54,981 bases of DNA from Deltaproteobacteria bacterium. Its GTDB lineage: Bacteria; Myxococcota; JADLHZ01. Under the pieces are notes generated by a model. The model saw nothing but the letters and a program-made list of their open reading frames with translations, was not told the DNA's origin and did no database searches. Location: NCBI GenBank assembly GCA_020848545.1, contig JADLHZ010000042.1, positions 1 to 54,981 of the forward strand, in the 5' to 3' direction. Made by a program: the position numbers and the translations under genes. Below are positions 29,462 to 46,457 of the stretch, one piece after another. Numbering within the stretch: position 1 is the stretch's first letter; each line of letters opens with the position of its first letter.

Positions 29462-30226
29462 TCAGAGCATCGGGTCCGTTCGCACGAGGTAGCCGGCGTG
29501 GATCAGCGCGTCGAACTGGCGCTCGATTCGCGCGGCCAGATCGGGTTCGAAGAGCCGCACCCCAAGCTCGATGTTGAGGTTCATCGCGAAGCCGGTCAGG
29601 TTCGCGCTCGTGATCAACGCCTCTCGCCCATCCGCTGCCGCGCATTTCGCGTGCAGCAGCCCGGCTCTCTGGCGCTCGTCGCGCTCACGCGCGTCAGCTG
29701 GCCAACAATAACATCGCGCGGAGCGGAGGATCTCGGGAGCGAAACCCAAACGCGCATCGACCGAGAGCCGCCCCTCGCTCTCTTCGCTGTGCTCCAACAC
29801 CAGCGAGAGCTGAACCCCTCGGGCCAACGCTGCCGCAAGTGCGTCGCTCAGCGCCTCCAGCCGATATGCAGCGAAAGAGACAAGGAGGACCCGCTCACGT
29901 GCGGCGGTCACGAGATCGACGAGCGCCTCGTCATGACGGCGCAGCGTACTCCCCTGCACCGACGGGCCGGACCATAAGAGCTCCGGTCGGCCGACGCGAG
30001 CGTGCATGGCGACCGCGCCTTCGAGCGCCGCCGCGATGGCCTCACGCGAGAGATTGGGCTCATCGCAACAAATCGCGAGCCGCTTCGCCCATGCAGCGAG
30101 CGACGGCGTGAGCGATTCGGCACCGCCGCGCCTCACCGCGATCGCAACCACTCTCGCCGAAGTGGTCGGCAGCTCGGCCGCACACGTGACCACCTGATTC
30201 AGCACTTCGGCAGGGAGCGCCGTCAT
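29462..30226 (-). CDS. drmC: DISARM phospholipase-D-like protein DrmC
   Basis: A 254-residue protein with one PLD active-site motif, HAKCAAAD (His-x-Lys-x4-Asp), followed by GREALITSANLTGFAMNLNIELGV. DrmC is the PLD-family component of DISARM and is reported to be dispensable for protection in some systems. ATG 30226 overlaps the drmB stop (ATGA), which decides the start; the longer frame to 30343 lies inside drmB. It is the last gene of the operon, with the A+T-rich region and the winged-helix gene after it. Confidence 0.88.
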   Translation of the reverse strand: MTALPAEVLNQVVTCAAELPTTSARVVAIAVRRGGAESLTPSLAAWAKRLAICCDEPNLSREAIAAALEGAVAMHARVGRPELLWSGPSVQGSTLRRHDEALVDLVTAARERVLLVSFAAYRLEALSDALAAALARGVQLSLVLEHSEESEGRLSVDARLGFAPEILRSARCYCWPADARERDERQRAGLLHAKCAAADGREALITSANLTGFAMNLNIELGVRLFEPDLAARIERQFDALIHAGYLVRTDPML

Positions 30227-32052
30227 CGCACGTTGAGCCCGGCAAAGAACGCGAATGCGTCGCGCGCGAGCGTCTGCACGAGCACGCTGCGATCGAGGTA
30301 ACGATTGCCCTTCTCGCACGAGGTCTCCGCCGCGAACAAACACGCATGGCAGGCGGCGCCGTGCAGCGACACGCCGGCGAGATCACTCCCAAAGTGATGC
30401 TCGCCGCAGAGCGGATCCGAGGCGCAGAGCCGCATGTGATCGAGCGCCGCCAGAACGTGACGCTCGAGTTCGGCCGGCTGTCCTTGCTTGACGAGACCGC
30501 CGAGCGTGCCTTCGCTGTCCGGCGCGGCCGTGTACAAAAGAAAGCCAGCCATCGGATCGCCGTCGCCGCCGGGCGCGTTCGAGTAGATCCGTTCGCGGAT
30601 GCTCGCCGAAGAGTAGCCACACTCAAGCGCGAGCTCGCGCATCAACGCGTGCGACAGCGAATGCAGCAGCAGATAGCGCACGCCTGGAAAGCCAATCTCC
30701 GGCTGATCCGCGCCTCGCGCCCTCCTCCAACGCACATGCGCTGCCCGCAGCTCATGCACCAGCGGCTCGACCGCGCGCGAGCTCTCCCACCGCGCAACTG
30801 TTTCCTCGTGGAGCGAAATGAAAATCCCCTCACCGCGCGTCTCCGTCGCGGGCGCGAACGAAGCCGCTCCGCGCGAAAGCCGCATGCGCCGGGTGTCATC
30901 GTACGCGATTCGATAGAAGCCGATGAGAGCTGTAACCGCGCGAAGGCGCTCGACTAGCCCGACGCGTTCGACGAGCCCGACCAAGCGCGCCGGGGTGGGC
31001 GCTCGCGTTAGCTTGAAGTCCGCTTCGATGCGCGACGTCTCGGGGCCGGAGAACACGCGCCATTCGGGCGGTTTCAGGTCCGGTGTCGGCTGATCAGCAG
31101 CCACGCCCTGGCGTTCGGCGAGGACCGCCGCCCAAACGTCCTCCGCTGTCGCGTCGCGAAGTGCCGGCAGCTCACCACGCTGAAGCAGGTAGCGCACCAC
31201 GTCGATGCTCGGTGCCTCGGAGAGCCGTTCCCAGTAGTGTTTCACGGCGTGTGTGAGGGGATCGCTCGCGAGCGGGATCGAGAGCGCCGAGAGCTGATCG
31301 GCAAACCAGAGGTTGGACGCGCCGAGCAAGATCGGCGTCGCGCGCTCCTCGCACGTCTCGAAGTCGCGAAGATGGGGCCGCCTGCCTCGACATTGCGGCA
31401 TCGCAGCCCGCCCTTCCTCTCCGAACACGACCGCGAGCGGCACACTGCGATCGCAAACGCGGCACGCGATGAACACGTCGGCCACTTCGCCTGACACACC
31501 GCCCTCCCGCAGCTCGAGTACGGGGCGCTCACAACGCGGATGATCGCCGTGCACGATCTCCACCCACGGAAAGTCGTCGACATGTCCGTTCTCGCACGCA
31601 ACGAGGAAGCGCGCCGGCAACGCCCGCACCGGCCGGGGGCCACACGTGCGATGAACAAAGTGAGCCTTCTCCGGCCGGATGTCGTTCGCTTGAAAATCAA
31701 AGACGCCCGAGTTGAGCGGACCCAAGAAGTTGCAACGCGGACAGCGGAGCCATCGCGGGAAGATACCGACCGGGAGCCCGCGCTCGACACCGTCCGTATG
31801 CATGGAGCGGTGTGGCCCGTCGTCTTCGCTGATCGGCGGCGAGAGCAAGCGCTGGACATTGGGTCCGAGCAAACCTTGCACCGCGGCGAGTAGGCGTGGC
31901 TCATCGATTGGCGCGCATGCGTCGCGCGGCCAATCATCGAGGCCCATCACCATAACGGATAGGTTGGGCAAGTCGATCACGCAGCCAACGCCGGCCATGT
32001 ACTGGGTCTGGCTTGGCCGCACCGTCCCGAGCTTCGTCTGCGGCAGCGTCAT
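30223..32052 (-). CDS. drmB: DISARM DUF1998 protein DrmB
   Basis: A 609-residue protein. Zinc-type Cys pairs appear at WLRCPRCNFLG and ACRVCDRSVP. The C-terminal third is the DUF1998 region: RYLLLHSLSHALMRELALECG, then LLYTAAPDSEGTLGGLV and the Cys cluster CASDPLCGEHH and GAACHACLFAAETSCEKGN. DrmB forms a complex with DrmA that can sense free DNA ends of incoming phage. ATG 32052 overlaps the drmA stop (ATGA) and has GGAG upstream; GTG 32064 is a less likely start. Confidence 0.92.
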   Translation of the reverse strand: MTLPQTKLGTVRPSQTQYMAGVGCVIDLPNLSVMVMGLDDWPRDACAPIDEPRLLAAVQGLLGPNVQRLLSPPISEDDGPHRSMHTDGVERGLPVGIFPRWLRCPRCNFLGPLNSGVFDFQANDIRPEKAHFVHRTCGPRPVRALPARFLVACENGHVDDFPWVEIVHGDHPRCERPVLELREGGVSGEVADVFIACRVCDRSVPLAVVFGEEGRAAMPQCRGRRPHLRDFETCEERATPILLGASNLWFADQLSALSIPLASDPLTHAVKHYWERLSEAPSIDVVRYLLQRGELPALRDATAEDVWAAVLAERQGVAADQPTPDLKPPEWRVFSGPETSRIEADFKLTRAPTPARLVGLVERVGLVERLRAVTALIGFYRIAYDDTRRMRLSRGAASFAPATETRGEGIFISLHEETVARWESSRAVEPLVHELRAAHVRWRRARGADQPEIGFPGVRYLLLHSLSHALMRELALECGYSSASIRERIYSNAPGGDGDPMAGFLLYTAAPDSEGTLGGLVKQGQPAELERHVLAALDHMRLCASDPLCGEHHFGSDLAGVSLHGAACHACLFAAETSCEKGNRYLDRSVLVQTLARDAFAFFAGLNVR

Positions 32053-35000
32053 TCTTCGCTCCACGGTCGATCGTCATCAAGCGCCGCGTCTTGCAGCACG
32101 AGCGGCACGCTCGGCTCGACATCGCGCAGAGAGTTCAAGCATGCGAATTCGGTCCACGGCCGCTCGCTCGCCGATCGGAGCAAGGCCCGCGTCGGGCCGT
32201 CCGAGTCTTCGCGATAGCCGAGACGAGCGCCCACGTTGCGCCGTCGTTCGGCCGCCCACATGTCGATCCGCCGCTGCAGCAACGCACGGGTTTCATCAGC
32301 GACCGCACGCGATCCGGTAACGGTCTCTGCGCGCCGAACGATCGCGTCGATAGCTTCGGCAACGACCGGAGAGCGCGGGTCGAAATGCTCGGCGCCGCTG
32401 TTCGGATTGAGCGTCTCGTCACAGAGCCTCGTGAGCGCGACGAGGATGCCCGTGAGCCCGCGATCGAGCGCGCGACTCGCAAACGGCGTGAGCGAGAGCG
32501 GTTCGACATGGCGATACAAGCTTTGGTGGTAATGCTCGAAGCGTTCGAAGTGCGAGAGATCGCGCGGCCGCGTCCAGTTGTACACTGTGCAGACGATCCC
32601 GGGCACGCCACGACCTACGCGGCTCGTCGCTTGGATGTACTCGGACGTCGTCTTCGGCTGACCGCACACGAGCATCAACCCGAGGCGCGGCACGTCGACG
32701 CCCACCGAGATCATGTTCGTGGCGAGCACGACGTCGAGCGGCAGCGGCTGGTTAGGTTGGCGCTGCACCTGCGGCGAGAACTTCAGCTCGAGGCGGTCGA
32801 GGATTTTTGGGATGTCATCCGACGAGCGCCGCGAGGTGAGCTCCTCCGGCGAGCGAATCATGCGCCGCGCGAGCCCGTGACGATCCATCCGGCGCAACCG
32901 GGCGCGCACGTCGTCCTCGATCAAGCGGCGCATGCCGGCGAGTTCGCGCATGGCGTTAAAGTAGCCGATGGCGGTCATCCACGGATCGGCGGCTTCGCCC
33001 CAGCGATCGAGGAGCACTTGGCCGGCCGCGAGAAACGCAGCGTAGACGCGAATCAAGATCGCCTTCATGCGCCGGCCGGATGCGCACACACCGAGATAGA
33101 GCCGCCCCGGATGGAAGTCGTCCGTTCGTTCGAGCGAGAAGAAGTTGCTCTTCGCCGACGTGCCGTGCGGTGGGAAGATCGCGACCTTGCGGCCAAAGAG
33201 CGCGTGCACCTGATCGCGTGCGCGACGAATGGTGGCGGTCGACGCGATCACCTTCGGACGCACGCGTCTGCCGTTCGCCTCCCACGTGCATAGTGCGTCG
33301 ACGGCGGTCTCGTAGAGCCCGGTCAAGCTTCCGAGTGGGCCGCTGATCAAATGGAGCTCGTCTTGGATGATGAGATCTGGTGGCCGCAGCGGTGGATGCG
33401 CTTCGAGCCGAACATTTGGCTCTTGTGAATTCGAAACGTGACTCTGCGCGTCCTCGACCTCGGAGGACACGAACCCGTGGCGCGGACATCGGCCGGTGAC
33501 TCGGCCGAAGAGCATCTCCACTTGGCCCTTCCACGGCATCTGCGCGAGCTTATCGACCGTGGCGATCACGAGCGACGGCAAGCGGCGGTAGATCTCTTCG
33601 TCGACGACGACGACCGGCAGGCCTTCTTTCGGCGCCTGGGCTTCCGTGAAGGCGCAACGCCCGTACCGTTCGGCGCAGAACGCGAGCGTCCGCGCGGACC
33701 CCGCCGGATACTTGCTCACGCGATAGGTTACGGCGCTCCCACACCACGGACACGCTGTGAGCTGCTTCGGCGAGCTGATCGCCGCCGTCCACTGAGCGCC
33801 TGCGTCACGGAGCGCTTGATCCGAGTGATCCGTCCAGAGTGGCGTGCTGCGCTCGCCCACCCAGAGGCCAAGGCGAAACGGCTCTTGTCCGTAGCGTGGG
33901 TCCGCAGCGACTTGCTCGCGCCGGATCACCTCGCACGCGCACACGAGAGCCGCCGCCCGCTGAAACTGCTGCAACGTTAGGAGGCGCAATGTGTAGCGCA
34001 TCAGCACCGCGACGCCGCTCGCGCCAGAGTAACCCGACACCGTGCCTTGGAGACGCCGTATCAAGAACGTGTACGCGGCGAGCCCGAGATACGCTTCCGT
34101 CTTGCCACCGCCGGTGGGAAACCAAAGCAAGTGCGCGGGCGACGCCGGATCTTCGCTGCGATCCGGATGATCGAGCAACGTGAGGCCTGGCAGGTTCAGG
34201 AGGATGAAGCCCATTTGAAAAGGACGCCAGGTGCGATCCTTCTCTTGGTCGTGGTCTTCGAGCGTCGTCCCCTTTCCGGCCTTCTTCGCGCGCGCGAAGA
34301 GCGCGTGCACGCGTTGCTGCCACATGGCGCGATTAAGGAAACGGAACGCCTCGAAGGCGTCGACGTTCTCGGCAAGGAGCTCGAGACCGCGGCGCATGCC
34401 CGTGAGCGCGTCCTCACACCTCGCGAGCGCCGCGGTTGCGGGCTCCTCGTGCCCTCCAAGCTCGTCGCGCGGCGCAGCTCTCTCGTCGTCGATCCACGCG
34501 CGATAGGCCCCAAGCAACGGTGCGAGCATCGCCTGCACCGTGGCGGGAGACGGCGCTTCCGCCAGACGCTTCATATCGAGCACTACGCCTGAGAGCGCCG
34601 GCGCGTCCGACACGAGCACCGATCCCATGTCCGGCACAACGGAGGACGGCATCACCACCGTCGCGATCTCCGTCGCACGCTCGGGATCCACCTCGTGCGC
34701 TTCGACGCATGTCGCGACTCCGTGCCCGACGGCGAACTCCGGGCGATGACGGTAGAGCATCGCCATCGCCTGCTGTTCGAGCTCAGCGCCATCGTCGTTC
34801 GCGCTGCGGCGGCAGACGAAGATCGGCCCGTCGCCGCTCACGCGAAGCTCCGGCTGAAAGAGCCAGGCTTCGTCGCGGTTGCGATCCGGCTCCTGTTGGC
34901 CGTTGACGAGAAACAGACTCACGACCCATGCATCCGCGGTCTTGCGGGCGACGCCGTCGACGTAGATGTCCGCGTGACTCTCGACCGGTGAAAAGCGCGC

Positions 35001-35813
35001 GATCGGCCCCTCGGCGAGCGGAACCTGCACGCTCTTTCCAAGCATCGGGCACCGCTTCCACACCATCGGATGTTTGCCATCCCCTCCGGCGCGCGCGCTG
35101 CGAACGCGTTCATAGCGACCCCAAGCGGTGTCCACGACGAACGCGCTCGCCGCTCGATCGACCGCGAACGTCATGCCGATGGACGACGGCAGTAAGCTGT
35201 TCGTCGGCGGTCGCTCCTCGCGGCCTTCTTCGCCGTAACCGCCGCCGTCCTCCACCGCGAGATCGTCATCGTCAGCCGCGTGCATGCGTTGATAGCGCGG
35301 CGCCAGGGCGCCGAGGATGTACCGCTCCGAGACGCGCTGCTCGTCGATCTCCTCCTCAGGGCCGCCGGCGGGGCCGACGAGCTCGCCGGCCACAAGCGTG
35401 TGCAGTTCCGCACGCAGTTGGCGCGATGGCGGCGCCGCGAGCACGCGCGGTGGCGGTGGGTTCGCCGGTGGCGGTGGGTACTCAGCGGCGTCCAATGCTT
35501 CGCGGGAGTCCTCGACGACATCGACGACTTCGATCTCGTCGGCCTTCGGCGCTCGCTTCGCCGTCTTCTTGTTCTTCTTCGCCGGCTTCTTCTTCGCGGT
35601 CTGTGCGGCGACGACCTCGGCCACTTCGTCGCGCATCGTGCCAAGACCGAGCGCCTCGTCGTCGAGCGGCACACCAGCAAAGAGCGCGGCGATGTCAGCG
35701 TCGACCTCGCACACCTCGGTCCAGTCGAGCGTGAGAGTGCCAGCCCGCAGCTCGGCGTTCATCTTCTTCAGTTCCGCGGCGGTGGGCGCGAAGCGTCGTT
35801 CGAGTTTCTTCAT
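32049..35813 (-). CDS. drmA: DISARM helicase DrmA
   Basis: A superfamily 2 helicase of about 1,254 residues. Walker A is LWFPTGGGKTEAYLGL near residue 570, the DEAD-box-like motif is IQDELHLISGPLGSL near 818, motif III is IASTAT, and motif VI is EYIQATSRVGRGVPG near 1063. The large N-terminal part has an Ala/Pro-rich linker (ANPPPPRVLAAPPSR) and a Lys-rich stretch (KKKPAKKNKKTAKR). Together with DrmB it makes the core complex of DISARM. ATG 35813 overlaps the upstream stop by four bases like the other joints in the operon; GTG 35834 would add seven residues. Confidence 0.93.
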   Translation of the reverse strand: MKKLERRFAPTAAELKKMNAELRAGTLTLDWTEVCEVDADIAALFAGVPLDDEALGLGTMRDEVAEVVAAQTAKKKPAKKNKKTAKRAPKADEIEVVDVVEDSREALDAAEYPPPPANPPPPRVLAAPPSRQLRAELHTLVAGELVGPAGGPEEEIDEQRVSERYILGALAPRYQRMHAADDDDLAVEDGGGYGEEGREERPPTNSLLPSSIGMTFAVDRAASAFVVDTAWGRYERVRSARAGGDGKHPMVWKRCPMLGKSVQVPLAEGPIARFSPVESHADIYVDGVARKTADAWVVSLFLVNGQQEPDRNRDEAWLFQPELRVSGDGPIFVCRRSANDDGAELEQQAMAMLYRHRPEFAVGHGVATCVEAHEVDPERATEIATVVMPSSVVPDMGSVLVSDAPALSGVVLDMKRLAEAPSPATVQAMLAPLLGAYRAWIDDERAAPRDELGGHEEPATAALARCEDALTGMRRGLELLAENVDAFEAFRFLNRAMWQQRVHALFARAKKAGKGTTLEDHDQEKDRTWRPFQMGFILLNLPGLTLLDHPDRSEDPASPAHLLWFPTGGGKTEAYLGLAAYTFLIRRLQGTVSGYSGASGVAVLMRYTLRLLTLQQFQRAAALVCACEVIRREQVAADPRYGQEPFRLGLWVGERSTPLWTDHSDQALRDAGAQWTAAISSPKQLTACPWCGSAVTYRVSKYPAGSARTLAFCAERYGRCAFTEAQAPKEGLPVVVVDEEIYRRLPSLVIATVDKLAQMPWKGQVEMLFGRVTGRCPRHGFVSSEVEDAQSHVSNSQEPNVRLEAHPPLRPPDLIIQDELHLISGPLGSLTGLYETAVDALCTWEANGRRVRPKVIASTATIRRARDQVHALFGRKVAIFPPHGTSAKSNFFSLERTDDFHPGRLYLGVCASGRRMKAILIRVYAAFLAAGQVLLDRWGEAADPWMTAIGYFNAMRELAGMRRLIEDDVRARLRRMDRHGLARRMIRSPEELTSRRSSDDIPKILDRLELKFSPQVQRQPNQPLPLDVVLATNMISVGVDVPRLGLMLVCGQPKTTSEYIQATSRVGRGVPGIVCTVYNWTRPRDLSHFERFEHYHQSLYRHVEPLSLTPFASRALDRGLTGILVALTRLCDETLNPNSGAEHFDPRSPVVAEAIDAIVRRAETVTGSRAVADETRALLQRRIDMWAAERRRNVGARLGYREDSDGPTRALLRSASERPWTEFACLNSLRDVEPSVPLVLQDAALDDDRPWSEE

Positions 35814-37888
35814 GCTTTGCTCGTCAAATTCCACTTCTCTTTGTCGAACGGTTGAAACAGCGGGCCCTTATCCGCGGCATCGAGGACCACAAGCAACGCC
35901 CGCATCGCGCGCGTCATCGCGACGAAAATCGTTCGGCGCTCGCGACGAAGAAGCTCGATCTCTTCGTCGTCGCCCGCGCCGCGCAGTTCAGGCGGATAGC
36001 GCTCCTGCACGAAGCCGGCGAGCATCACGACGGGGAACTCGAGGCCTTTGGCGGACTTCATCGTCAGGACCTTCACTTCTGAGGCCTTCAGGTCGAGTTC
36101 CTTTCCCTTCATAAACGCGGCGGGCACTTTGTTTGCATTGAGACCCATTGCGACGCGACGCGCGGAAGCTTCGGTCGGACAGAGTACCGCCGCGCCCCCT
36201 ATGCCGAGGCGAAGCTCACGGGTGGCGTTGCGGATGAAATTCGCCAGCAACGTCTCTTCCTGGCCGGGCGTCTTCACCTTGCGCACGGCGGGCTCGAAGC
36301 CCTCGTGCGCGTGAGGTGTTTCGCTCTCGTCGTCATCGAGCGCGCCGTCTTCGAGGTAGCTCTTCGCAGCGAGCGCGAGCTGCTTCGTTGACCGATAGTT
36401 CACCTTCAATGCGTGTGTGTGGCCCTTGAACGACAGCGTCTCATGCACGTCCGCCCAGCGGAAGGCGCCGCCGTAGATCGACTGGTTCGCGTCCGCGGTG
36501 AGGAAGAGGCGCGCCTTCTGCTTGCATAGGTGCACGAGCATGCGGATAGCGGTGGGCTCGAGATCCTGGGCTTCGTCGATGATGACCGCGTCGTACGTCA
36601 GCGGTGGACCGTGCTCGGCGACTCTCGCGGCCTCGGCGCGAAGCATCTGCCACGTGATCGCTTTTTGGGCGGCGAGCTCATTGTGGAACGTCTGTGTCAC
36701 GGTCCATACGGCACGACGCTGGAGCTTCGACAGCGCGAGCTCTCGGCCGGCGCGTTTGGCAGCGAGGTACGCCGCGAGGGAGTCGAGGTTGCGCGCCTGG
36801 ATCACGGCTGTGATCTCTTCAAGGAGGTAGTCGAGCTGAAGCTTCGCGATCGCCTCGCGTTGCGCCGCTTGCTCCATGGCATTGCCGTCGTAGTCGGCAC
36901 CCTTCACGGCGCGCTCGAGGGTACGCTTGAGATCGATCCCATCAGCGAGCTTCCGCCCGGCGATCCACTGCTCGGCGAGCTGACGCGCCACACTGTCAGC
37001 GGTGCGGACGGTGACGAGGTCCGCGTGCTCGCCGAGCAGCGACTTCAGCAGCTGTTGCGAGTAGGCGACGAGCGCGTTCGTATACGTCGTGAACAGGATC
37101 GACGGCTTCTGCTTCTCCTTCAACGCGCGATCGACGATCGCCTTGCAGCGATAGAGCGCGACCGTGCTCTTTCCAGAACCGGGGCCCCCTTTGAGCAGCG
37201 TTGGTCCGTTACTCGCGAGCCCCCACTTCACCGCCGACTCTTGGACCGGATCGAGGCGCAGGAGGAACGGCACGAGCTCGCCAGCACGAATGCGGAGGAG
37301 ATCGTCCGTGTCGTCGACGATCAGGTCCGGCGCGCGGAGGGCGTCTTCGAGGCGCGCGCCATTCACCATCTCGCAGAGAGCGAGGCGTTGATCCTCGGTG
37401 ATCTTCGCGAACGCGAGAAGCTCTTCTTCGTATTTCAGATCGAGCAACGCTTCGTGGAGCGCATCGGGCACGCGTTGCGCTTTGAGCATGGCTTCGGTCA
37501 GGCGGGAGATGAGCTTCGTCTTCGCCTTTTCTGGTTTCGCGAGAAGTTGCGGCCAGGTCTTTTGCGGCGTGGATGCAGGGAGCTCGGCGTCGAGACCGCC
37601 GAGGTGCTCAGACTCCGGCGGCGAGTCGTAGGTGTCTTCGGCGCGTTTGTCGATCTTGAGGACGCTGACGTACTTGTCATCGAAGAGGTAGAAGATCCGG
37701 TAGTCGCCAGAGCGTAGACGGTAGAGATCTCGGTCCAAGTGTTTGAGCTTCTTCTTCACTTTCGCGTCCGGCATAGGGTCAGCGCAGAGGGCCTTCAGCT
37801 TGTCGAGGATCTGCTTCGTGACCTTGGCGTCGAGCGCGAAGAGTTCGTTCTGCGCGCTCGGCTTCATCGACAGGATGCGATCGGTCAT
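35810..37888 (-). CDS. RelE/ParE-UvrD helicase fusion inside the DISARM operon
   Basis: A 692-residue two-part protein. Residues 1-85 look like a RelE/ParE-family fold (SMKPSAQNELFALDAKVTKQIL and LYRLRSGDYRIFYLFDDKY), the beta-sheet of toxin proteins. A UvrD/Rep superfamily 1 helicase follows: Walker A KGGPGSGKSTVALYR near 236, IIDEAQDLEP near 439, NYRSTKQL, and MKSAKGLEFPVVMLAG near 615, with VAMTRAMRALLVV at the end. The fusion is a known arrangement for some stand-alone helicases, but it is not one of the five classical DISARM genes. It lies 17 bases after drmMI and overlaps drmA by four bases, so it is part of the operon. No antitoxin gene is present. Confidence 0.88.
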   Translation of the reverse strand: MTDRILSMKPSAQNELFALDAKVTKQILDKLKALCADPMPDAKVKKKLKHLDRDLYRLRSGDYRIFYLFDDKYVSVLKIDKRAEDTYDSPPESEHLGGLDAELPASTPQKTWPQLLAKPEKAKTKLISRLTEAMLKAQRVPDALHEALLDLKYEEELLAFAKITEDQRLALCEMVNGARLEDALRAPDLIVDDTDDLLRIRAGELVPFLLRLDPVQESAVKWGLASNGPTLLKGGPGSGKSTVALYRCKAIVDRALKEKQKPSILFTTYTNALVAYSQQLLKSLLGEHADLVTVRTADSVARQLAEQWIAGRKLADGIDLKRTLERAVKGADYDGNAMEQAAQREAIAKLQLDYLLEEITAVIQARNLDSLAAYLAAKRAGRELALSKLQRRAVWTVTQTFHNELAAQKAITWQMLRAEAARVAEHGPPLTYDAVIIDEAQDLEPTAIRMLVHLCKQKARLFLTADANQSIYGGAFRWADVHETLSFKGHTHALKVNYRSTKQLALAAKSYLEDGALDDDESETPHAHEGFEPAVRKVKTPGQEETLLANFIRNATRELRLGIGGAAVLCPTEASARRVAMGLNANKVPAAFMKGKELDLKASEVKVLTMKSAKGLEFPVVMLAGFVQERYPPELRGAGDDEEIELLRRERRTIFVAMTRAMRALLVVLDAADKGPLFQPFDKEKWNLTSKA

Positions 37889-37905
37889 GTCTCCCTCGAG
37901 AGGCG

Positions 37906-40900
37906 TTAGAGCAGCGTGAGCGTCTTTTTGTCCTTCGGCTTGCGCCGAGTCGGCTTCAATGCCGCGGACCTCATCTCGGTGGTCGGCGGCGGATCGGAAT
38001 CTTCGTCAGGCTCGGGGGTGTCGCCCTGGAGACCTTGGCTGGCTTCTTCGGCGTAGCGCTCGTAATTCATAGCGAGGAGTCGATCGAGGATCTCGCGTAG
38101 AATCGAGCCTTCCATCGTGTATCGAACGCCTTCTCGCTGACGAAAGAAACCGTGCTGCGGGTTCAGATCTGTCCAGCCGTACGCCGTCAGAAGCAAGCGA
38201 TCGATTTCCGCATGGACTTCTCGAAGCGACTCAATTTCGGCGCTGCGTTGGCTGCTATCGTGGAAAAGATTGTAGAGGGAGGTTGGCCCCTGATCGCTGG
38301 CAAGCATCAGGCTCTCTCGTGTTTCGTGATACGCGAGAGAGCGCGCGCTCAGCCGTTCGAGCATCACCTGCTCAAGGTGTGGGACGGGAAATGTCGCTGC
38401 ACACCGCTTGGCACTGTAAACAAGATCTCGTTTGCGCCGGAGCCCCCATTTCCACGCCCATTCGACGTGAATCGAGGACTGAAGAATTCCAAATACTCCC
38501 CAGTGCCGAGCTGGAAATAGAACTGCCTTGTGTTTCGGCAAGCAGCGATTCAGATCCACCTTGCGAAACGCTAGGTGGACGGAGGTTTCGCCACACGCGA
38601 AACAAAGCGGGTTCTGCGCTGCCTCTACCCACAGTGCATTCGCCGGCCGTGAGTGCTCGAGGCTCTCCTCATCAGCGATGCCGAGTTCCGAGACTAGGGA
38701 AGCTCTCTTGCGCTCGCTCAAAACAGCCAGTCTGCGGCGATCGATTACCAATGGCGCTTCGTCATACAGATGTACGTATGAATAGAGTTCGTCGCCGCCA
38801 ACGACAGGAATGAGAACCCCTCTCGCCTCGGGCGATAGAGACTTGCACTCCGTTGCCGCGATCGGCCGATTCTGTGGGGAGAGCTTTACGCCCAGCATGG
38901 CGCACAGCGAGCTCTTAACCAATTTGTTCGGGAGCGCGTCAGACGTCGTGCCACCCGCGCGAAACTGGCCATCGATCTCTGCCACCGTCATGTCGTCGAG
39001 CAAGCGTCTGCCGTTCCAATCTTTCGTGAGGCAGAAGGCGACGAACTCAACTTGCGCGGTACCGGGCCACGGGCGGGGGGACCACGCGAATCGCGCAGCG
39101 CATCCGGCCGCTTTCAGCGGAGCAAGACAGCTCTCCGAGGTTTCTCCTCTCAAAATCGAGGAAGTGGAGATAAGTCCGACGTGACCACGCGGCGCGACCT
39201 GCACCCCGCGCTTCACAAAACCAACGACGAGGTCGGCCTTCCCATGCCAGGGCGGAGAGTGCCGCTGGAGCAACGCCATGTAGTCCTCACCCAGACGACT
39301 CGCGGCGATCGTTCCGTATTGAAAGGGAGGGTTGGAAACTACGGCATCAAAACCACCTGCGGCGAACGCCTCCGGAAACTCGAGAAGCCAATGAAACGGC
39401 CGCCACGTACGGGCGTCGCCGCTACCGGCGAGTACTGTGTCGACCTCCGAACGGAGGTGACGAAGCTTCGCCTCGCGATCGTCCTTCGCTCCGAGCGTAG
39501 CGCCGAGCCGAGCCGCCCAAGCCTGCATCGAGCGAGCCTCGACCGCTGCATTGCCTGGGCCCGCGGCGCGAGCTGCCGCGATCAAAGCGTCAGCCACAAG
39601 GTAAGCTTCGCGGAGACCCTCTTCGCACTCGCGCAGCAACTTCGCCTTCGCCTCGGCGTCGTGCAGATCGCGCACGGTGAAGCTCTCGAGCTCGCGGCGC
39701 TTCGCGATCGCGCGAGTCACCGCCGGCCCGAGGCGGCCGCGGAAGTCAAACAGGTCGCGCACATCCGCGGCGCGATCGGGGCTCAAGTGGAAGCGGCGCA
39801 CTTGTTCGAGATCGTGGACACCAAGCAAGGAGTCGCCGCACCGGAGCGCGTGATCGAGAAAGGTAAACGGCCGGTCGCGCTGCATTGTGATCAGCCAGAG
39901 CGACAGCTTCGCCATCTCGACCGCGAGCGGGTTCTTGTCGACACCGAACAAGCAGCGGTCAGCGACTATTCGGCGCGCCACGATGGAGCGCTCCTTCGGA
40001 TCGCGCGGGATCACTTGCTCCGTGAGCGCGCCACGGCCGAGATCGCCCTCCGGCGTCACCACGACTTGCCCGCTCGAGGAAGACTCGGCGCGTTCCCAAG
40101 CTTCTATGAGGCGATCAGCAAGATAGCGACATGCCTGTACCAAAAACGCACCTGAGCCCATCGCAAGATCGCAAATCTTCAACGACAACAGTGCTCGCGC
40201 CGACTTCAACGTCCACTCCGCCGCCGGCTTCCCTTCGCACGGTCCGTCGTAGACGAGCGCTTCGAGAGCATGCCGCACGATCGGCTCGGTGAGCGACTGC
40301 GGCGTGTAGTGCGTGCCGGTGCTTCGCCGCTCCGGACTGTCGGAGACGTAGAGCGTTCCCGCGGGCATCACCATTGGATCGCCGAACGACGTGTGCCGCA
40401 CGAGCAGCGAGAAAGGTCGTACCCGAGCGAGCAGCTTCTTGTCGTTCCCACACGCGGCTAGCCAGCGCGCATCGTCCTCGAGCTCGTCGCCGCTCTTCGT
40501 GAGCAGCTTCTCGACCTTCGCGACAGAAGCGCCCGTCTCCTCCGAGATCCAAGCGGCGAAAGACTCCGCGTCATCCCCGTAGCGTTGCTCAATTTCCTTC
40601 AACCCGAGTTCAGGTTCCTCCCCACCCTTGCCGATGAGCCCGAGCATCGGCGCCTTCGCGCGATACGTCGTGTGGTCGAGCAAACCCTCGTAGACGTGCC
40701 CGATCTGCTCGACGTCGAGCCCCGCAAAGGATAACCGACGCCGCTCGCGCTCACCGTTAGCGCCGCCCTTCATCTGCAAGAATTGGAGCGCTTCGAGCAC
40801 GTGCAGCACAGTGCGGTTGCTGATGTCGAGCGGCTCCGCCTCGCCGATCGCCTGCCCGCGCGTGCGCCCTTCGAGGAACGGAAAGCGGTCCACATCGAAG

Positions 40901-41973
40901 AGCGAGCCTCCGTACGCCGGGAGCCGCATGGCCTCGTGCTCGACGCCGCCGTGCACGGCGCGAAACAACGCCAAGAGGCGACCCCAGGCATCGAAGCTGT
41001 GCTCCAACACTTCCTCGCCATTGCGATCCGCTACCTCGCGCAGGCGCGCCGATAACGTCGACGCTGCGTAGTGCTGGTCATAGAACGGCTCGCCATATGG
41101 CAACTGCTTTCGCTCCTCCGCGCAGAAGAGAAACACGAGGCGCATGAGCACCGTGACGCACGCCTCGTACAGCTCGTTCTCGAAGAAACCCTCGAGCAGC
41201 CCGCGGTTGCGGTCGCGATCGATGTGATCGAGCGCCGCCACGAGCACCTCGATCGCCTGTCGCGCCTGCAAGCCGAGCTGCGCCGTCACCTCGTGCTGCT
41301 CGTTCGCGCTCGCCTCGAACAACGCGTCGAGCGTGTCCGTCTCTGGCACCGAGAAGAAGCGCCGCATTCGCAGCAGGCTCACGAACGCGCGGAGCAACGC
41401 CGGCTCCTCGATGAAGAGCCCGGAGTCGAAGGTGACGAAGCTCGCGCTCGCGCCTCGCGCCGCGAACACGAGCAGCCACTGCACACCGTTCGTCACGAGC
41501 CCGAGGCGCACGTTCTTCGCGAGCAAGAGCTCAAGCATGCGCGTGGCCGGTGATGCGGCGTACGGCGAGCCCGCGACAGGCCCGTCGAGCGCCTGGCCCG
41601 GCGGCATCACCGAGATGAATAGGCGTGGCGTGCCGGCTCCCGCACGTCCGGCCGGGTTCACGAACACGATGTCCGGGCGCAGCTCGACACCGTGCTCGGC
41701 CAAACGCTCGCACCACTCGGGCATCGGACCTTCGCGCCACACTTCGTCGTCGGCTTCGAGCAGCTCGCGGAGCACGAAACGCACCCAGAGCTTCTGCACG
41801 CTCGGATCCGCTTCGCTCTCGTCCCATTCGGAAAGCGCCGTACGCACACGCCCACGCACCTCGACGTTCACTTCGTCGAGTCCCTGGGGAAAGACACGAT
41901 CGAGAACCTTCAGCGACAGGCTAGGCCCGGACGCCTCCACGAGCTTCAACCAGTCGGCGTGTCGCGCGCTCAT
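37906..41973 (-). CDS. drmMI: DISARM adenine methyltransferase DrmMI
   Basis: A 1,355-residue N6-adenine methyltransferase of the type IIG/PglX-like class. The SAM-binding motif is CDLAMGSGAFLVQACRYL near residue 604, and the catalytic motif is VVSNPPFQYGTIAAS near 881. The N-terminal 500 residues are helical with no nuclease motif that I can identify, and the C-terminal 400 residues probably choose the target site. In class 1 DISARM this enzyme modifies host DNA to mark it as self. ATG 41973 overlaps the drmD stop (ATGA). The recognition sequence cannot be read from this protein. Confidence 0.93.
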   Translation of the reverse strand: MSARHADWLKLVEASGPSLSLKVLDRVFPQGLDEVNVEVRGRVRTALSEWDESEADPSVQKLWVRFVLRELLEADDEVWREGPMPEWCERLAEHGVELRPDIVFVNPAGRAGAGTPRLFISVMPPGQALDGPVAGSPYAASPATRMLELLLAKNVRLGLVTNGVQWLLVFAARGASASFVTFDSGLFIEEPALLRAFVSLLRMRRFFSVPETDTLDALFEASANEQHEVTAQLGLQARQAIEVLVAALDHIDRDRNRGLLEGFFENELYEACVTVLMRLVFLFCAEERKQLPYGEPFYDQHYAASTLSARLREVADRNGEEVLEHSFDAWGRLLALFRAVHGGVEHEAMRLPAYGGSLFDVDRFPFLEGRTRGQAIGEAEPLDISNRTVLHVLEALQFLQMKGGANGERERRRLSFAGLDVEQIGHVYEGLLDHTTYRAKAPMLGLIGKGGEEPELGLKEIEQRYGDDAESFAAWISEETGASVAKVEKLLTKSGDELEDDARWLAACGNDKKLLARVRPFSLLVRHTSFGDPMVMPAGTLYVSDSPERRSTGTHYTPQSLTEPIVRHALEALVYDGPCEGKPAAEWTLKSARALLSLKICDLAMGSGAFLVQACRYLADRLIEAWERAESSSSGQVVVTPEGDLGRGALTEQVIPRDPKERSIVARRIVADRCLFGVDKNPLAVEMAKLSLWLITMQRDRPFTFLDHALRCGDSLLGVHDLEQVRRFHLSPDRAADVRDLFDFRGRLGPAVTRAIAKRRELESFTVRDLHDAEAKAKLLRECEEGLREAYLVADALIAAARAAGPGNAAVEARSMQAWAARLGATLGAKDDREAKLRHLRSEVDTVLAGSGDARTWRPFHWLLEFPEAFAAGGFDAVVSNPPFQYGTIAASRLGEDYMALLQRHSPPWHGKADLVVGFVKRGVQVAPRGHVGLISTSSILRGETSESCLAPLKAAGCAARFAWSPRPWPGTAQVEFVAFCLTKDWNGRRLLDDMTVAEIDGQFRAGGTTSDALPNKLVKSSLCAMLGVKLSPQNRPIAATECKSLSPEARGVLIPVVGGDELYSYVHLYDEAPLVIDRRRLAVLSERKRASLVSELGIADEESLEHSRPANALWVEAAQNPLCFACGETSVHLAFRKVDLNRCLPKHKAVLFPARHWGVFGILQSSIHVEWAWKWGLRRKRDLVYSAKRCAATFPVPHLEQVMLERLSARSLAYHETRESLMLASDQGPTSLYNLFHDSSQRSAEIESLREVHAEIDRLLLTAYGWTDLNPQHGFFRQREGVRYTMEGSILREILDRLLAMNYERYAEEASQGLQGDTPEPDEDSDPPPTTEMRSAALKPTRRKPKDKKTLTLL

Positions 41974-44900
41974 GTGAGACCTTCCGGCACGAGGTAGGTC
42001 ACGGCGACCGCGAACAACCGATGCGACGCGCCCGAATAGCGCGCGCGCAGGGCCTTGCTCTCACGCTCAATCTCTCGAGGTATCGCCTGCACACGCGCAG
42101 CGAGCGACTTTCTGTTCCGCTCAAGCTGTTGCCGCTCGTTGTCCGCGAACAAGGGCAATTGCGCCGGCAGATCCTCCGCGAGCGCTGCTTCGATCCGTGC
42201 GCGAAGCTCGGTTAACAGGGCCTCGAGCTGCTCTGCTTCCTTGTTTCCGCGCTCGGCGAGCATTTTCGTGAGGCTCGCGAAGCGGTCTTCCGCGCGCCGC
42301 TCGAGCAGTGTGAACGCCTCGGCCTCGTGTTTTGGCCACAACGTGGCGAGCTTATCGCGGACCGGCGCCGGCGCGTCGTTGTCCGTCGCTGCCGCCAGCG
42401 CTGCGTCCACTTCCTTCGCTGTCGCCTTCGTCAGCTTGCCTTCGCGAACACGCGCACCGGCGGTGAGGATCTCTTCATGTAGGCGATGGTTGTCCGCGCC
42501 GAGGATCAGCAAGCGGCCGTGCAAGACCAGCATCGGTGCATCGAGCACGTGGTTCGGCGCCGTGCGCGTCGTAACTCGTTGCAACGCGCGGCGCTCGTCA
42601 CGCGTCCATACCTGCGCGCGGAGCACGCCCAGGCTCATACGCACGAGCCGATGATTCAAGTGCGCAAGCACCACGTCGTCGCGTTCTTCGGCGAGCGCGG
42701 GGTCGAATACGATCGGACGCTCCTCGCCTGTATGAGGATGCCGCAATCCCTCGCTGCTGCGCGCCCAGGAGCCGTCGAGTTTCGGCAGCCGGTAGCCCTT
42801 ACCGCCGGTCACCGCAACTTCGCGCAGCGGAGGCTTCTTGGCGATCGCGAGCGCCTCTTCGACCACCGCGCGGACGCGATCTGGGGACAAGCTGAGCGTC
42901 GCGCGACTCTCGTCGAGCTTCGCCTTGTGGGCGGCGAGATCCTCTTTCAAGCGACGTTCGAGCTTGAGCAGGCGTTTGATAGGCGCCGTGGCTGACTCTG
43001 CGGCAGCGGTCTCCAGGCGCTTGCGCCTACCAAGCATGGCCTCCGAGACCTGCTGCGAGATAACGGGCCCCACCTTGCCGAGGTCTTCGCGGATCTGCTC
43101 GACCTTCACCGCCGCACGGGCAAGGAACTCGAGATCGCCTTCAAGCGAGCCGGGCGCCACCTCTTTTTCACCGCGAGTCGAGAAGCCGGCGCCGACGAAG
43201 TGAAATATGTCGACCTGCTTCGCGCGCTGGCCGTGCCGATCGATGCGGCCATTGCGCTGCTCGAGGCGGTTCGGGTTCCACGGGATCTCGTAGTGCACAA
43301 GGCGCGAGCAGTGGTTCTGCAGATCGATACCTTCGGACGCGGCATCGGTGGCGAGGAGTAGCCGCGCAACGCTCTGCTTCGGCCCCGCCTGAAACGCCGC
43401 CTTGATCGCCTCGCGGTCGTCTTGCGGCATGCCGCCGTACAGCATGAGCACCCGGTTTTCTCCCGCGAGTCCAGCCGACGCCAGCTGCTCCAAGAGCCAG
43501 TTTTGCGTCGTTCGATACTCCGTGAAGATGATCGCGCGCTCGTCGCCCCACTTCCGCTTCTTGCAGATATTCGCTTCGAGCCACGCGAAAAGCGCGTCGA
43601 GCTTCGCGTCGCCCTTTGCCGTCGCAGAACGGGCCCACTTCGTGAGCTTGTCGACGAGCGTCTTCTCTTCCTGAGACAGCGCCGGCAGATCGCCGCTCGC
43701 CGCGAACAACACCTCGCTCTCGGCCTCGTCGTACTCGTCGTCGAGGAGATCGTCGTCGTCGAAGCGGTCATAGTCGCGCCGCGATGCCGCGTGCCTCTTC
43801 CCTTCAACGGTCGCGCGATGTTTCTCGAGCGTGGACAGAAACGCGGCCGGCGATGAGAACAAGCGCTTCTTCAGCAGCTTCGTCACGAACTCGGCTGCGT
43901 TCACCGCACGCGCGCTCGCGGCGACTTCGCGACGAAGCACGCTGTAGCGTTCGAGCAACGCATGCGCTTCCCGCTCGGCGTCCGGGTACGCGACCTCGAG
44001 GTGCGCGAGTTCCCGCTTCGGAAACCGCGGCGTGTCGTCCCAATTGACGATCTCGCTCTTCAGCCGTCGCACCATCACCGCATGCAGCTGCTCCTTGTTC
44101 GGCTCGACGCCGCGGTGGAAACGCTGGTCGTCAAGAAGCTCGAGCAGTGCGGAGAAGCTCTCGGCATAACCGTTGTGCGGCGTGGCGGAGAGGAACAGCT
44201 TGTGCTCGAAGTGGGGCACTATCGTCCGCACCGCTTGGGTCCGCAACGAATCGATCGCGTACCGACCAACACCGGACGGCGCGACGTGGTGCGCTTCGTC
44301 AACGATCAAGAGGTCGAAGCGCCGGGGGAAGCTCTCCGCCTGGGACGGCAATACCTCCTTCATTAGCCGCAACGGGCGATCGCGCTTCAGGTAGTCGATC
44401 GACACGATGAGCCGAGGGAAGTGCGTCCATGGATTGCAGCGAAGACCGCGTGCGCGCCGAAGCTCGCGCATCAGCTCGGCGTCCACGATGCGAAACTCGA
44501 GGCCGAACTTGTCGCGCATGTGATCGCGCCATTGCAGACACAGCGCGGCCGGACAGACGACCAGCGCCGTGCGAACGCGATGGCGAAGCGTGAGCTCCTG
44601 CAGTACGAGCCCGGACTCGATCGTCTTACCGAGACCGACGTCGTCCGCGAGGAGCAAGCTCACGCGTGGCATCGAGAGCGCACGTACGACAGGTTCGAGC
44701 TGGTAGGTCTCGACTTGAATGCCGCTGCGAAAAGGCGCTTGAAGAACTTTCGCATCCGCGGAGGCGATCGCGCCCCAGCGAACGGCATCGAGGAAGGCCT
44801 GATGTCGACGCGGCGGGTCGAAACCACTTCGCGGATCCGGCAAGCCGGCGTTTTCGTGCACGCGCGCGCCGGGCTCGATCTCCCACACGACTTCGAGCGG

Positions 44901-45050
44901 GCTGCCGAGGTCGACGTCTTCCACCGACGACAGGCCGACGACGTGCTGTGGTTTCTGCTGCGCAGCGAGCGCGAAGGTGCTCTCGCGAACATCCGTCACG
45001 ACGAAGCGACTGCGTCGAACTTCGACAAGTTGTCCCGGAACCGGAATCAC
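41970..45050 (-). CDS. drmD: DISARM SNF2-family helicase DrmD
   Basis: A 1,026-residue SNF2-like helicase, the gene that defines class 1 DISARM. Walker A is LLADDVGLGKTIESGLVL near residue 137, the DEAH motif is LLIVDEAHHVAPSG near 253, LFLSATPHNGY is motif III, IIFTEYRTTQNWLLEQL starts the second lobe near 513, and NRLEQRNGRIDRHGQ is motif VI near 605. The C-terminal 400 residues form long charged helices. GTG 45050 is preceded by GGAGAG. It is the first gene of the operon; its upstream region (45051-45161) carries a palindrome and is then cut by an IS element. Confidence 0.92.
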   Translation of the reverse strand: MIPVPGQLVEVRRSRFVVTDVRESTFALAAQQKPQHVVGLSSVEDVDLGSPLEVVWEIEPGARVHENAGLPDPRSGFDPPRRHQAFLDAVRWGAIASADAKVLQAPFRSGIQVETYQLEPVVRALSMPRVSLLLADDVGLGKTIESGLVLQELTLRHRVRTALVVCPAALCLQWRDHMRDKFGLEFRIVDAELMRELRRARGLRCNPWTHFPRLIVSIDYLKRDRPLRLMKEVLPSQAESFPRRFDLLIVDEAHHVAPSGVGRYAIDSLRTQAVRTIVPHFEHKLFLSATPHNGYAESFSALLELLDDQRFHRGVEPNKEQLHAVMVRRLKSEIVNWDDTPRFPKRELAHLEVAYPDAEREAHALLERYSVLRREVAASARAVNAAEFVTKLLKKRLFSSPAAFLSTLEKHRATVEGKRHAASRRDYDRFDDDDLLDDEYDEAESEVLFAASGDLPALSQEEKTLVDKLTKWARSATAKGDAKLDALFAWLEANICKKRKWGDERAIIFTEYRTTQNWLLEQLASAGLAGENRVLMLYGGMPQDDREAIKAAFQAGPKQSVARLLLATDAASEGIDLQNHCSRLVHYEIPWNPNRLEQRNGRIDRHGQRAKQVDIFHFVGAGFSTRGEKEVAPGSLEGDLEFLARAAVKVEQIREDLGKVGPVISQQVSEAMLGRRKRLETAAAESATAPIKRLLKLERRLKEDLAAHKAKLDESRATLSLSPDRVRAVVEEALAIAKKPPLREVAVTGGKGYRLPKLDGSWARSSEGLRHPHTGEERPIVFDPALAEERDDVVLAHLNHRLVRMSLGVLRAQVWTRDERRALQRVTTRTAPNHVLDAPMLVLHGRLLILGADNHRLHEEILTAGARVREGKLTKATAKEVDAALAAATDNDAPAPVRDKLATLWPKHEAEAFTLLERRAEDRFASLTKMLAERGNKEAEQLEALLTELRARIEAALAEDLPAQLPLFADNERQQLERNRKSLAARVQAIPREIERESKALRARYSGASHRLFAVAVTYLVPEGLT

Positions 45051-45161: not shown

Positions 45162-46431
45162 CAGGTTGTTGAAAAATCCGGAGAACGAGGCGGCGCAACT
45201 CCGCTGACGAAGGTTCTTGTCGAAAGGTCTATCGCAGGCGGCGAAGAGCGTGCCGCCTCGCTGGCGAATCCCTCATGCTGTGGCAGCGGGGAGCAGCTTG
45301 GCGATCCGGATCAGGTTGTACGCCGCACCCACGAAGTATGAAGCGAACTCCGTGCGCGCCAGTCCCTTGAACCGCGTGCGCCTGAAATTGCCGATCGTCT
45401 TCATCCAACCGAAGATCTCCTCGACTCGTTTTCTGATCCGCTGGCTGACGGCGTAACCACCATGCCGAACCGTCCGCCGATCGACCGCTGAGCGTCGCCG
45501 GCTGCAGTTCTGCGCCACGTGCGGCGTCACGTTGCGCGCCCGGCATTGCGCGATGAAGTCGGCGGTGTCGTAGCCCTTGTCGGCGCCGAGTGTGATGCGC
45601 CGCGTGCCGCCGAGCGCGTCGTCCATCATCTCGACAGCGACATCTCGTTCAGCGGTGCCGGTCGCCGGCGCGATCCGCAGTCCGACCAGAAGACCGTTGC
45701 GATTCTCCATGAGCGCGTGTTGCGAGAAGGCGAGCTTCGCTTCCTTGCCGTTGCCCTTGCGCGCGAGCTTTGCCTCTTCATCGGTGGTCGACGCGTGCGT
45801 CTCGTTGCTGCGTTTCTCGCCGTGAAAATTCACCGTCGGATTGCCGGGGTCATCCGGTGGCCGCTGATCGTCGCCCCCGTCCTTCTTCTTGAAGCTCTTC
45901 AGCGACGCCCACGCTTCGATCAGCGTCCCGTCGACCGTGAAGTGATCGTCGCTCATGAGCCCGGCTTTTCGCGCCTGCACCACGATCGTCTCGAAGAACT
46001 GCCAGGCGACCTCGTGCTCCATCAGCCGAGCTCGGTTCTTCGCGAAGCTCGAGTGGTCGAAGCTCTCATCGTCCATGTTCATGTCGAGGAACCAGCGGAA
46101 GAGGAGGTTGTAGTCGAGCTGCTCGCAGAACATCCGCTCGCTTCGCACGGTGTAGAACGCCATCAGCAGCATCGCCTTCAGCAGCCGCTCCGGCGGGATC
46201 GAAGGCCGACCGACCTTGCTGTACATGCCTTCGAGCGTGTGGCCGATCTCCACGAGCGCCGCATCGGCCAGCACCTTCACCTTTCGCAGCGGATGATCCT
46301 TCGGCACCCGGTGCTCCGGCGTGATCAGGCTCAGCATCGTCGCTTGTTTCGTGTCGCTCCCGCGCATCCGTGCACTCTACAGACGGCCGGCTCGAAGTCG
46401 ATCTCTCGACTCCTCTTTTTTCAACAACCTG
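45162..46431 (-). mobile_element. IS5-type insertion sequence, complete, 1,270 bp
   Basis: The left terminal repeat is CAGGTTGTTGAAAAA (45162-45176) and the right end is its complement, TTTTTTCAACAACCTG (46416-46431). A 4-base target duplication, CTAG, flanks the element at 45158-45161 and 46432-46435. One intact transposase gene lies inside, on the minus strand. Perfect ends, an intact gene and an exact duplication point to a recent insertion. The element lies between the divergent drmD and gajA genes, separating them by about 1.4 kb where about 133 bases would remain without it. Confidence 0.93.
45273..46367 (-). CDS. IS5-family transposase
   Basis: A 364-residue DDE transposase. The opening RVPKDHPLRKVKVLADAAL is the usual start of this group, and the N-terminal helical domain has YNLLFRWFLDMNMDD. 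The catalytic acids are in FTVDGTLIEAWAS (first Asp), ITLGADKGYDTADF (second Asp) and RVEEIFGWMKTIGNFR (Glu). All are present and the frame is intact, so the element is probably still mobile. It reads toward drmD. Confidence 0.93.
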   Translation of the reverse strand: MRGSDTKQATMLSLITPEHRVPKDHPLRKVKVLADAALVEIGHTLEGMYSKVGRPSIPPERLLKAMLLMAFYTVRSERMFCEQLDYNLLFRWFLDMNMDDESFDHSSFAKNRARLMEHEVAWQFFETIVVQARKAGLMSDDHFTVDGTLIEAWASLKSFKKKDGGDDQRPPDDPGNPTVNFHGEKRSNETHASTTDEEAKLARKGNGKEAKLAFSQHALMENRNGLLVGLRIAPATGTAERDVAVEMMDDALGGTRRITLGADKGYDTADFIAQCRARNVTPHVAQNCSRRRSAVDRRTVRHGGYAVSQRIRKRVEEIFGWMKTIGNFRRTRFKGLARTEFASYFVGAAYNLIRIAKLLPAATA

Positions 46432-46457
46432 CTAGCTCTCCGACCAAAGGCGAGCGC

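What the first reader, a model, noticed from the sequence alone, without database searches (positions are those of the whole stretch)
29462..45050. Complete class 1 DISARM with a RelE-UvrD fusion embedded in the operon
All five class 1 genes are present and nearly all joints overlap by four bases. Between drmMI and drmA is an extra gene: a RelE/ParE-like fold fused to a UvrD helicase, coupled on one side by overlap. It is not one of the classical parts. It may be an accessory effector, for example a switch between restriction and shut-down.
Basis: partly seen in the sequence, partly recalled or inferred. Interest (0 to 1): 0.65.

Follow-up and report, generated by a model that had tools for sequence, protein, structure and literature searches.

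The report
Toxin-helicase gene built into DISARM operon
An anti-phage operon of the known DISARM type carries an extra gene, an RNA-cutting-toxin-like domain fused to a DNA helicase, and the same extra gene recurs at the same place in DISARM operons of several bacterial phyla, so it is probably a working part of those systems rather than a stray passenger.

Summary
The window holds a complete class 1 DISARM operon (drmD-drmMI-X-drmA-drmB-drmC, minus strand, 45050-29462). Gene X (37888-35810, 692 aa) is an intact RelE/ParE-fold domain fused to a UvrD/Rep-type SF1 helicase. Four of five joints are 4-base overlaps; X starts 17 nt after drmMI behind a Shine-Dalgarno-like stretch.

X is not unique. 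Relatives sit at the same place, directly 5' of drmA, in 20 further class 1 operons (window's phylum, Cyanobacteriota, Chloroflexota). In 19 operons X co-diverges with DrmA as tightly as DrmB does (r 0.91 against 0.92). X-bearing operons all fall in one DrmA clade. The RelE basic residues R57/R59/R64/R82 and the Walker A lysine are almost invariant, and no antitoxin gene lies beside X.

The architecture is already known as ArmD of ARMADA Type II (2025 preprint), where it is essential and the defence is non-abortive. X belongs to a sister clade with a more canonical RelE site. The drmMI-drmA joint is also a general cargo slot: filled in 48 of 79 operons, against 1 of 119 at drmA-drmB.

Most likely X is an ArmD-like working partner of DrmA. 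A 'switch to shut-down' is untested.

The parts
41970..45050 (-). drmD, SNF2/RapA-like helicase (1026 aa)
   Evidence: NF038317 1287 bits against cut-off 610; PADLOC DrmD 1342 bits
37906..41973 (-). drmMI, N6-adenine methyltransferase of Eco57I/MmeI kind (1355 aa), with SNPPF motif; 4-base overlap with drmD
   Evidence: PADLOC DrmMI 1348 bits; PF07669; sequence
35810..37888 (-). RelE-UvrD fusion 'RU' (692 aa); starts 17 nt after drmMI; overlaps drmA by ATGA
   Evidence: PF05016, PF00580, PF13361; folds; joints
37625..37888 (-). RelE-fold domain, residues 1-88; basic residues R57, R59, R64, R82
   Evidence: PF05016 E 3.7e-8; Z 12.6 to archaeal RelE 1wmi; conservation
35879..37273 (-). UvrD/Rep-type SF1 helicase core, about residues 206-670; Walker A K240, DEAQD 438-442, motif VI R660
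   Evidence: Pfam; Z 20.0 to Rep 1uaa; invariant residues
32049..35813 (-). drmA, YprA-family SF2 helicase (starts at ATG 35813)
   Evidence: NF038325 1326 bits against cut-off 950; start
30223..32052 (-). drmB, OB/DUF1998 (MZB) protein (starts at ATG 32052)
   Evidence: NF038324 632 bits, PF09369; start
29462..30226 (-). drmC, PLD-fold nuclease with HAKCAAAD (HxKxxxxD) motif (starts at ATG 30226)
   Evidence: NF038319 193 bits against cut-off 133; start; sequence

Best explanation
RU is an ArmD-like working subunit of a clade of class 1 DISARM systems, acting together with the YprA helicase DrmA. Proposed working: DrmAB recognises and opens incoming unmodified DNA; RU, an SF1A-type (by homology 3'-5') translocase, loads on the exposed single strand; and its tethered RelE domain, which has no antitoxin gene, is held silent until the helicase is engaged and then cuts mRNA on ribosomes near the invader, so that phage DNA and phage messages are attacked together. 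Shown here: the domains, intact motifs, recurrence at one place, co-divergence with DrmA, near-invariant RelE basic residues, absence of an antitoxin gene. Inferred: physical contact with DrmA, polarity, RNA cleavage, order of events, and that it is direct rather than abortive defence (carried over from ARMADA).
For: Same place, same strand, 5' of drmA in 21 of 21 class 1 operons that carry RU, including exact 4-base overlaps in cyanobacterial and Chloroflexota loci. RU also sits directly 5' of the YprA gene in nine ARMADA-like loci, and ArmD sits directly 3' of armC in ARMADA II: the constant partner is the YprA helicase. All 21 RU operons fall in one DrmA clade. DrmA-RU distance correlation 0.91 over 19 loci, against 0.92 for DrmA-DrmB; over 14 loci DrmA-RU is 0.91 and DrmA-DrmMI 0.64. 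Window, L159 and L046 group together in both trees. R57, R59, R64 are kept in 21/21 and R82 in 20/21 DISARM-linked RU; Walker A K240 in 21/21. The RelE fold includes Cami1, a RelE effector of CRISPR systems (8phj, Z 9.4). In ARMADA II, ArmD deletion or the K266A Walker A change abolishes defence, and infected cells stay intact (PMC12458937).
Against: RU is missing from most class 1 operons (9 of 82 DrmA-sampled operons with a readable slot), so it is not needed for DISARM in general. Many Chloroflexota RU genes stand alone among ordinary genes, so RU can act without DrmA. RU is in a different clade from ArmD, whose RelE site differs (S/T at 57, H at 82), so carry-over from ARMADA is an analogy. 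Co-divergence can also come from joint transfer of neighbouring genes: DrmB is adjacent too, and with the second RU group removed r falls to 0.82.
Confidence: 0.5

Rival explanations
1. RU is an independent anti-phage gene lodged in a permissive slot of the operon, as the type IV enzyme BrxU is in some BREX loci. It shares DISARM's promoter but not its mechanism.
For: The drmMI-drmA joint is a general cargo slot: filled in 48 of 79 operons, against 9/64 (drmD-drmMI), 1/119 (drmA-drmB) and 1/83 (drmB-drmC). It also holds GmrSD, AAA plus DUF4435 (PARIS-like), HATPase with REase_II and spbK matches, UvrD plus DUF2290, AIPR/AbiU and others. RU also occurs inside a BREX locus and alone.
Against: RU usually lies next to drmA rather than anywhere in the slot, even when other cargo is present (L054, L061, L159, L291, L309, L312). 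It co-diverges with DrmA as DrmB does. It pairs with the YprA gene in ARMADA-like loci as well.
Confidence: 0.25
2. RU is a fail-safe (guard): silent while DISARM works, it releases the RelE toxin and stops translation when a phage inhibits DISARM, as PrrC does inside EcoprrI.
For: An antitoxin-free RelE domain with a conserved site; precedents of effectors embedded in restriction loci (PMC12707154); translational coupling to drmA.
Against: ARMADA with ArmD is non-abortive and ArmD is needed for defence itself (PMC12458937). Stand-alone RU copies have no restriction system nearby to guard.
Confidence: 0.15
3. RU is mainly a DNA-processing helicase; the RelE fold is only a docking module (to ribosome, RNA or DrmA) without toxin activity.
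For: In the ArmD clade two of the four RelE basic positions are replaced (S/T57, H82), yet ArmD is needed. The RelE-like domain diverges more than the helicase (40% against 50% mean identity).
Against: In the RU clade the four arginines are nearly invariant across phyla, which docking alone would not obviously require.
Confidence: 0.1

Closest known systems
ArmD of ARMADA Type II (PMC12458937, bioRxiv 2025)
   Same: RelE-like domain fused to a GajB-like UvrD helicase; in an operon with an SNF2 helicase, a PglX-like methylase and a YprA helicase; adjacent to the YprA gene
   Different: 25-28% identity to E. coli ArmD; separate clade; lies 5' of the YprA gene, not 3'; keeps R57 and R82, where ArmD has S/T and H; partner is DrmA with separate DrmB and DrmC
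Class 1 DISARM
   Same: All five genes in canonical order
   Different: Sixth gene between drmMI and drmA
GajB of Gabija
   Same: UvrD-type helicase in a defence locus; PADLOC GajB models match (E 4e-30)
   Different: No GajA partner for RU; carries a RelE domain. A separate Gabija pair lies next door at about 46458-49650 and its GajB shows almost no similarity to RU
Cami1 (CRISPR-associated RelE effector)
   Same: RelE domain used as an effector in a larger protein in a defence setting; fold match Z 9.4
   Different: Cami1 is switched by cyclic oligoadenylate through a CARF domain (own knowledge; the cA4-bound entry is listed); RU has a helicase instead
Effectors embedded in restriction loci (BrxU in BREX, PrrC in EcoprrI)
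   Same: Extra effector gene inside a restriction-type operon (PMC12373910, PMC12707154)
   Different: RU co-diverges with DrmA and recurs at one fixed place

Membership tests
Class 1 DISARM | drmD, drmMI, drmA, drmB, drmC present in order on one strand | tested here: met
Class 1 DISARM | Catalytic motifs of the core genes intact | tested here: met
   GLGKT/DEAHH in DrmD, SNPPF in DrmMI, GGGKTE in DrmA, HxKxxxxD in DrmC
Class 1 DISARM | Anti-phage activity | not testable with these tools
   no experiment
ARMADA Type II | YprA helicase of the ARMADA lineage with fused canopy and nuclease domains, followed by ArmD | tested here: not met
   The window helicase is a DrmAS equivalog with separate DrmB and DrmC; RU lies 5' of it
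ArmD family | N-terminal RelE-like domain fused to a UvrD helicase | tested here: met
ArmD family | Placement within the ArmD clade | tested here: not met
   RU and ArmD lie in separate, well supported halves of the tree (root drawn at the midpoint)
RelE/ParE toxins | RelE fold with conserved basic catalytic residues | tested here: met
   Z 12.6 to aRelE, 11.7 to E. coli RelE; R57, R59, R64, R82. The correspondence to E. coli RelE K52, K54, R61, R81 is from memory
RelE/ParE toxins | Cognate antitoxin gene adjacent | tested here: not met
   17 nt from drmMI, 4-base overlap with drmA; no room for a same-strand gene on either side
RelE/ParE toxins | Ribosome-dependent mRNA cleavage or gyrase poisoning | not testable with these tools
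   needs biochemistry
Gabija (GajB) | Adjacent GajA partner | tested here: not met
   Neighbours are drmMI and drmA; the local GajA pairs with its own GajB
Embedded guard (PrrC-like) | Toxicity triggered by inhibition of the host restriction system | not testable with these tools
   needs infection experiments

The most novel reading that the evidence does not exclude
A whole clade of class 1 DISARM systems is a two-pronged machine: DrmAB plus a helicase-borne, antitoxin-free RelE that attacks phage messages as well as phage DNA. More widely, the RelE-UvrD/YprA gene pair would be an ancient effector unit shared by DISARM, ARMADA and related systems, with the drmMI-drmA joint as a standing slot for exchangeable effectors.
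Probability: 0.25. Interest if true: 0.8.

Novelty: new variant of a known kind. Interest (0 to 1): 0.55.

Why it matters
How DISARM destroys DNA is open: its nuclease DrmC is dispensable and how degradation is achieved is described as a mystery (PMC9142583). A conserved partner with its own motor and a nuclease-like toxin domain, co-diverging with DrmA, is a concrete candidate for a missing effector in one clade, and it links DISARM to ARMADA. The RU clade also offers the better test of whether the RelE domain of such fusions cuts RNA: ARMADA's ArmD has lost two of the four basic positions, and the preprint's main text describes no change made in its RelE domain. The drmMI-drmA cargo slot is a simple rule for finding further effectors.

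Tried and rejected
Single-protein scan of genome contigs with RU found nothing; the scan with a DrmA alignment worked. Rejected: GajB membership (no GajA partner; separate Gabija next door). Rejected: a recent fusion, frame accident or foreign insert peculiar to this genome (the same architecture in dozens of genomes, no stop, similar GC3). Rejected: RU as a normal ArmD (separate clade). Considered: RU as random slot cargo. As a yardstick the commonest other cargo (HATPase of the HATPase plus Methyltransf_35 pair, 10 loci) correlates with DrmA at 0.69, lower than RU, but on fewer and closer loci, so this is only a weak contrast. The whole-protein model (pLDDT 70) is too poor between domains to say how the RelE domain is held. 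Literature searches for DISARM with a RelE-UvrD gene found only the ARMADA preprint on this point; subscription papers and supplementary files could not be read. Promoter scan gave nothing useful.

Full report
Observation. The minus strand from 45050 to 29462 encodes drmD, drmMI, an extra gene (here RU), drmA, drmB and drmC. NCBIfam equivalogs name DrmD, DrmA and DrmC, its subfamily model names DrmB, and PADLOC names DrmMI. RU has Pfam ParE_toxin (PF05016) at residues 8-85 and UvrD N- and C-terminal domains at 215-668, all above cut-off. Joints: drmD/drmMI 4 bases; RU/drmA, drmA/drmB and drmB/drmC are ATGA once the in-frame ATG starts are used; drmMI to RU 17 nt with GAGGGAG before the ATG.

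Structure. An AlphaFold2 model of the N-terminal 95 residues (pLDDT 79) matches RelE toxins: archaeal RelE Z 12.6, M. tuberculosis RelE about 12.4, E. coli RelE 11.7, RelE on the ribosome 9.9, and Cami1, the CRISPR-associated RelE effector, 9.4. The C-terminal part matches Rep, PcrA and UvrD, Z 18-20. The whole model has low confidence between domains.

Recurrence. A scan of 84,980 species genomes with a DrmA alignment gave 80 DrmA loci; 195 genomes of the window's phylum gave more. Profiles built in Python from window and plasmid genes annotated all of them. RU lies between drmMI and drmA, or directly 5' of drmA where drmMI is not in hand, in nine of 82 DrmA-sampled operons with a readable slot, the window included. 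These include a deltaproteobacterial MAG, Oculatella and other Leptolyngbyaceae, Nostoc, Coleofasciculus, Ktedonobacter racemifer and a genome of the window's phylum. Searching by RU itself found it (E up to 1e-60 or 1e-100) in 13 of 193 genomes of the window's phylum, of which only 4 are full RU-type matches from the N-terminus, in 10 of 339 of the phylum of the cyanobacterium G198 and in 40 of 350 of the phylum of the Chloroflexota genome G203. Reading the surroundings brought the DISARM-linked set with a full drmA to 21. The samples are biased: the 80 loci are those most like the window's DrmA, and the later ones were found through RU.

What it partners. In the 21 DISARM operons RU is always on the same strand, 5' of drmA, usually touching or within 150 bases; 0.8-1.9 kb intervene in four. 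In nine ARMADA-like loci RU is directly 5' of a YprA helicase gene, and in ARMADA II proper the ArmD gene is directly 3' of armC. RU also occurs in a Deinococcus BREX locus between brxC and the methylase and, often in Chloroflexota, alone among ordinary genes.

Trees. RU and ArmD proteins form two well separated halves of one tree (79 rows); the DISARM label needs 10 changes against a shuffled mean of 22.6. On the DrmA tree all 21 RU operons lie in one clade of 44-47 rows. Among DrmA-sampled loci of that clade with a readable slot, 9 have RU, 9 other cargo and 1 is empty; outside it none of 63 has RU. Window, L159 and L046 group together in both trees. Pairwise distances of DrmA and RU correlate at 0.91 over 19 loci, DrmA and DrmB at 0.92; over 14 loci DrmA-RU is 0.91 and DrmA-DrmMI 0.64. 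Without the second RU group and one near-duplicate, r is 0.82. Joint transfer of adjacent genes contributes to such values, so this is support, not proof, of functional coupling.

Residues. In DISARM-linked RU, R57, R59 and R64 are kept in 21 of 21, R82 in 20 of 21, and the Walker A lysine K240, DEAQ E439 and motif VI R660 in all. By position these match the basic active-site residues of E. coli RelE (K52, K54, R61, R81; from memory). The ArmD clade has S or T at 57 and H at 82. Y87 is common but shifts in the alignment.

The slot. The drmMI-drmA joint holds more than 300 bases in 48 of 79 operons, against 9/64, 1/119 and 1/83 at the other joints (Fisher p 8e-9 and 1e-23, not corrected for relatedness). 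Other cargo: an HATPase plus putative O-methyltransferase pair (10 loci), GmrSD, AAA ATPase plus DUF4435 (PARIS-like), HATPase with REase_II and spbK matches, UvrD plus DUF2290 (a PADLOC helicase model), AIPR/AbiU, a DEDDh exonuclease protein, Schlafen AlbA, KAP NTPase. I found no description of this slot in the papers that could be searched.

What is known. [quoted passage not shown] All four genes are needed, ArmD K266A abolishes protection, and the defence is non-abortive. The main text that I read does not mention ArmD-like genes in DISARM and describes no RelE mutants. In DISARM, DrmAB is the DNA sensor and motor, DrmC is dispensable, and how DNA is destroyed is open (PMC9142583).

Verdict. 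RU is most likely an ArmD-like working partner of DrmA in one clade of class 1 DISARM (0.5). An independent lodger in a cargo slot (0.25), a fail-safe toxin (0.15) and a docking-only RelE fold (0.1) remain. It is a new variant of a known kind: known architecture, known system, a combination and a recurrence that I did not find described.

Noticed in passing
window 45519-49650 (+): A Gabija pair (GajA 585 bits, matching from residue 314, about 46458; GajB 483 bits) lies divergently beside the DISARM operon: a defence island.
   Followed up: partly
window 45273-46367 (-): IS5-family transposase (NF033581, 260 bits) between drmD and gajA, antisense to the unmatched N-terminal part of the gajA frame.
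   Followed up: no
window 50036-51526 (+): Ser/Thr kinase resembling PD-T4-6 (225 bits) directly after the Gabija pair.
   Followed up: no
L093:7181-9601 and about nine other loci: The commonest cargo of the drmMI-drmA slot is an HATPase_c_3 protein followed by a Methyltransf_35 protein; no PADLOC match for the HATPase.
   Followed up: partly
L042:6880-8863: AAA ATPase plus DUF4435 (PARIS-like, weak AriB match) inside the class 1 DISARM operon of Trichormus variabilis.
   Followed up: partly
L007:14980-17001: RelE-UvrD inside a Deinococcus BREX locus between brxC and the methylase gene.
   Followed up: partly
L113, L124 (divergent beside drmA); L110, L112, L116 (downstream of drmC): Actinobacterial DISARM loci carry an ArmD-clade UvrD gene next to the operon.
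   Followed up: partly
L046:352-11060: Operon with drmD, RelE-UvrD, drmA and drmB but no drmMI between.
   Followed up: no
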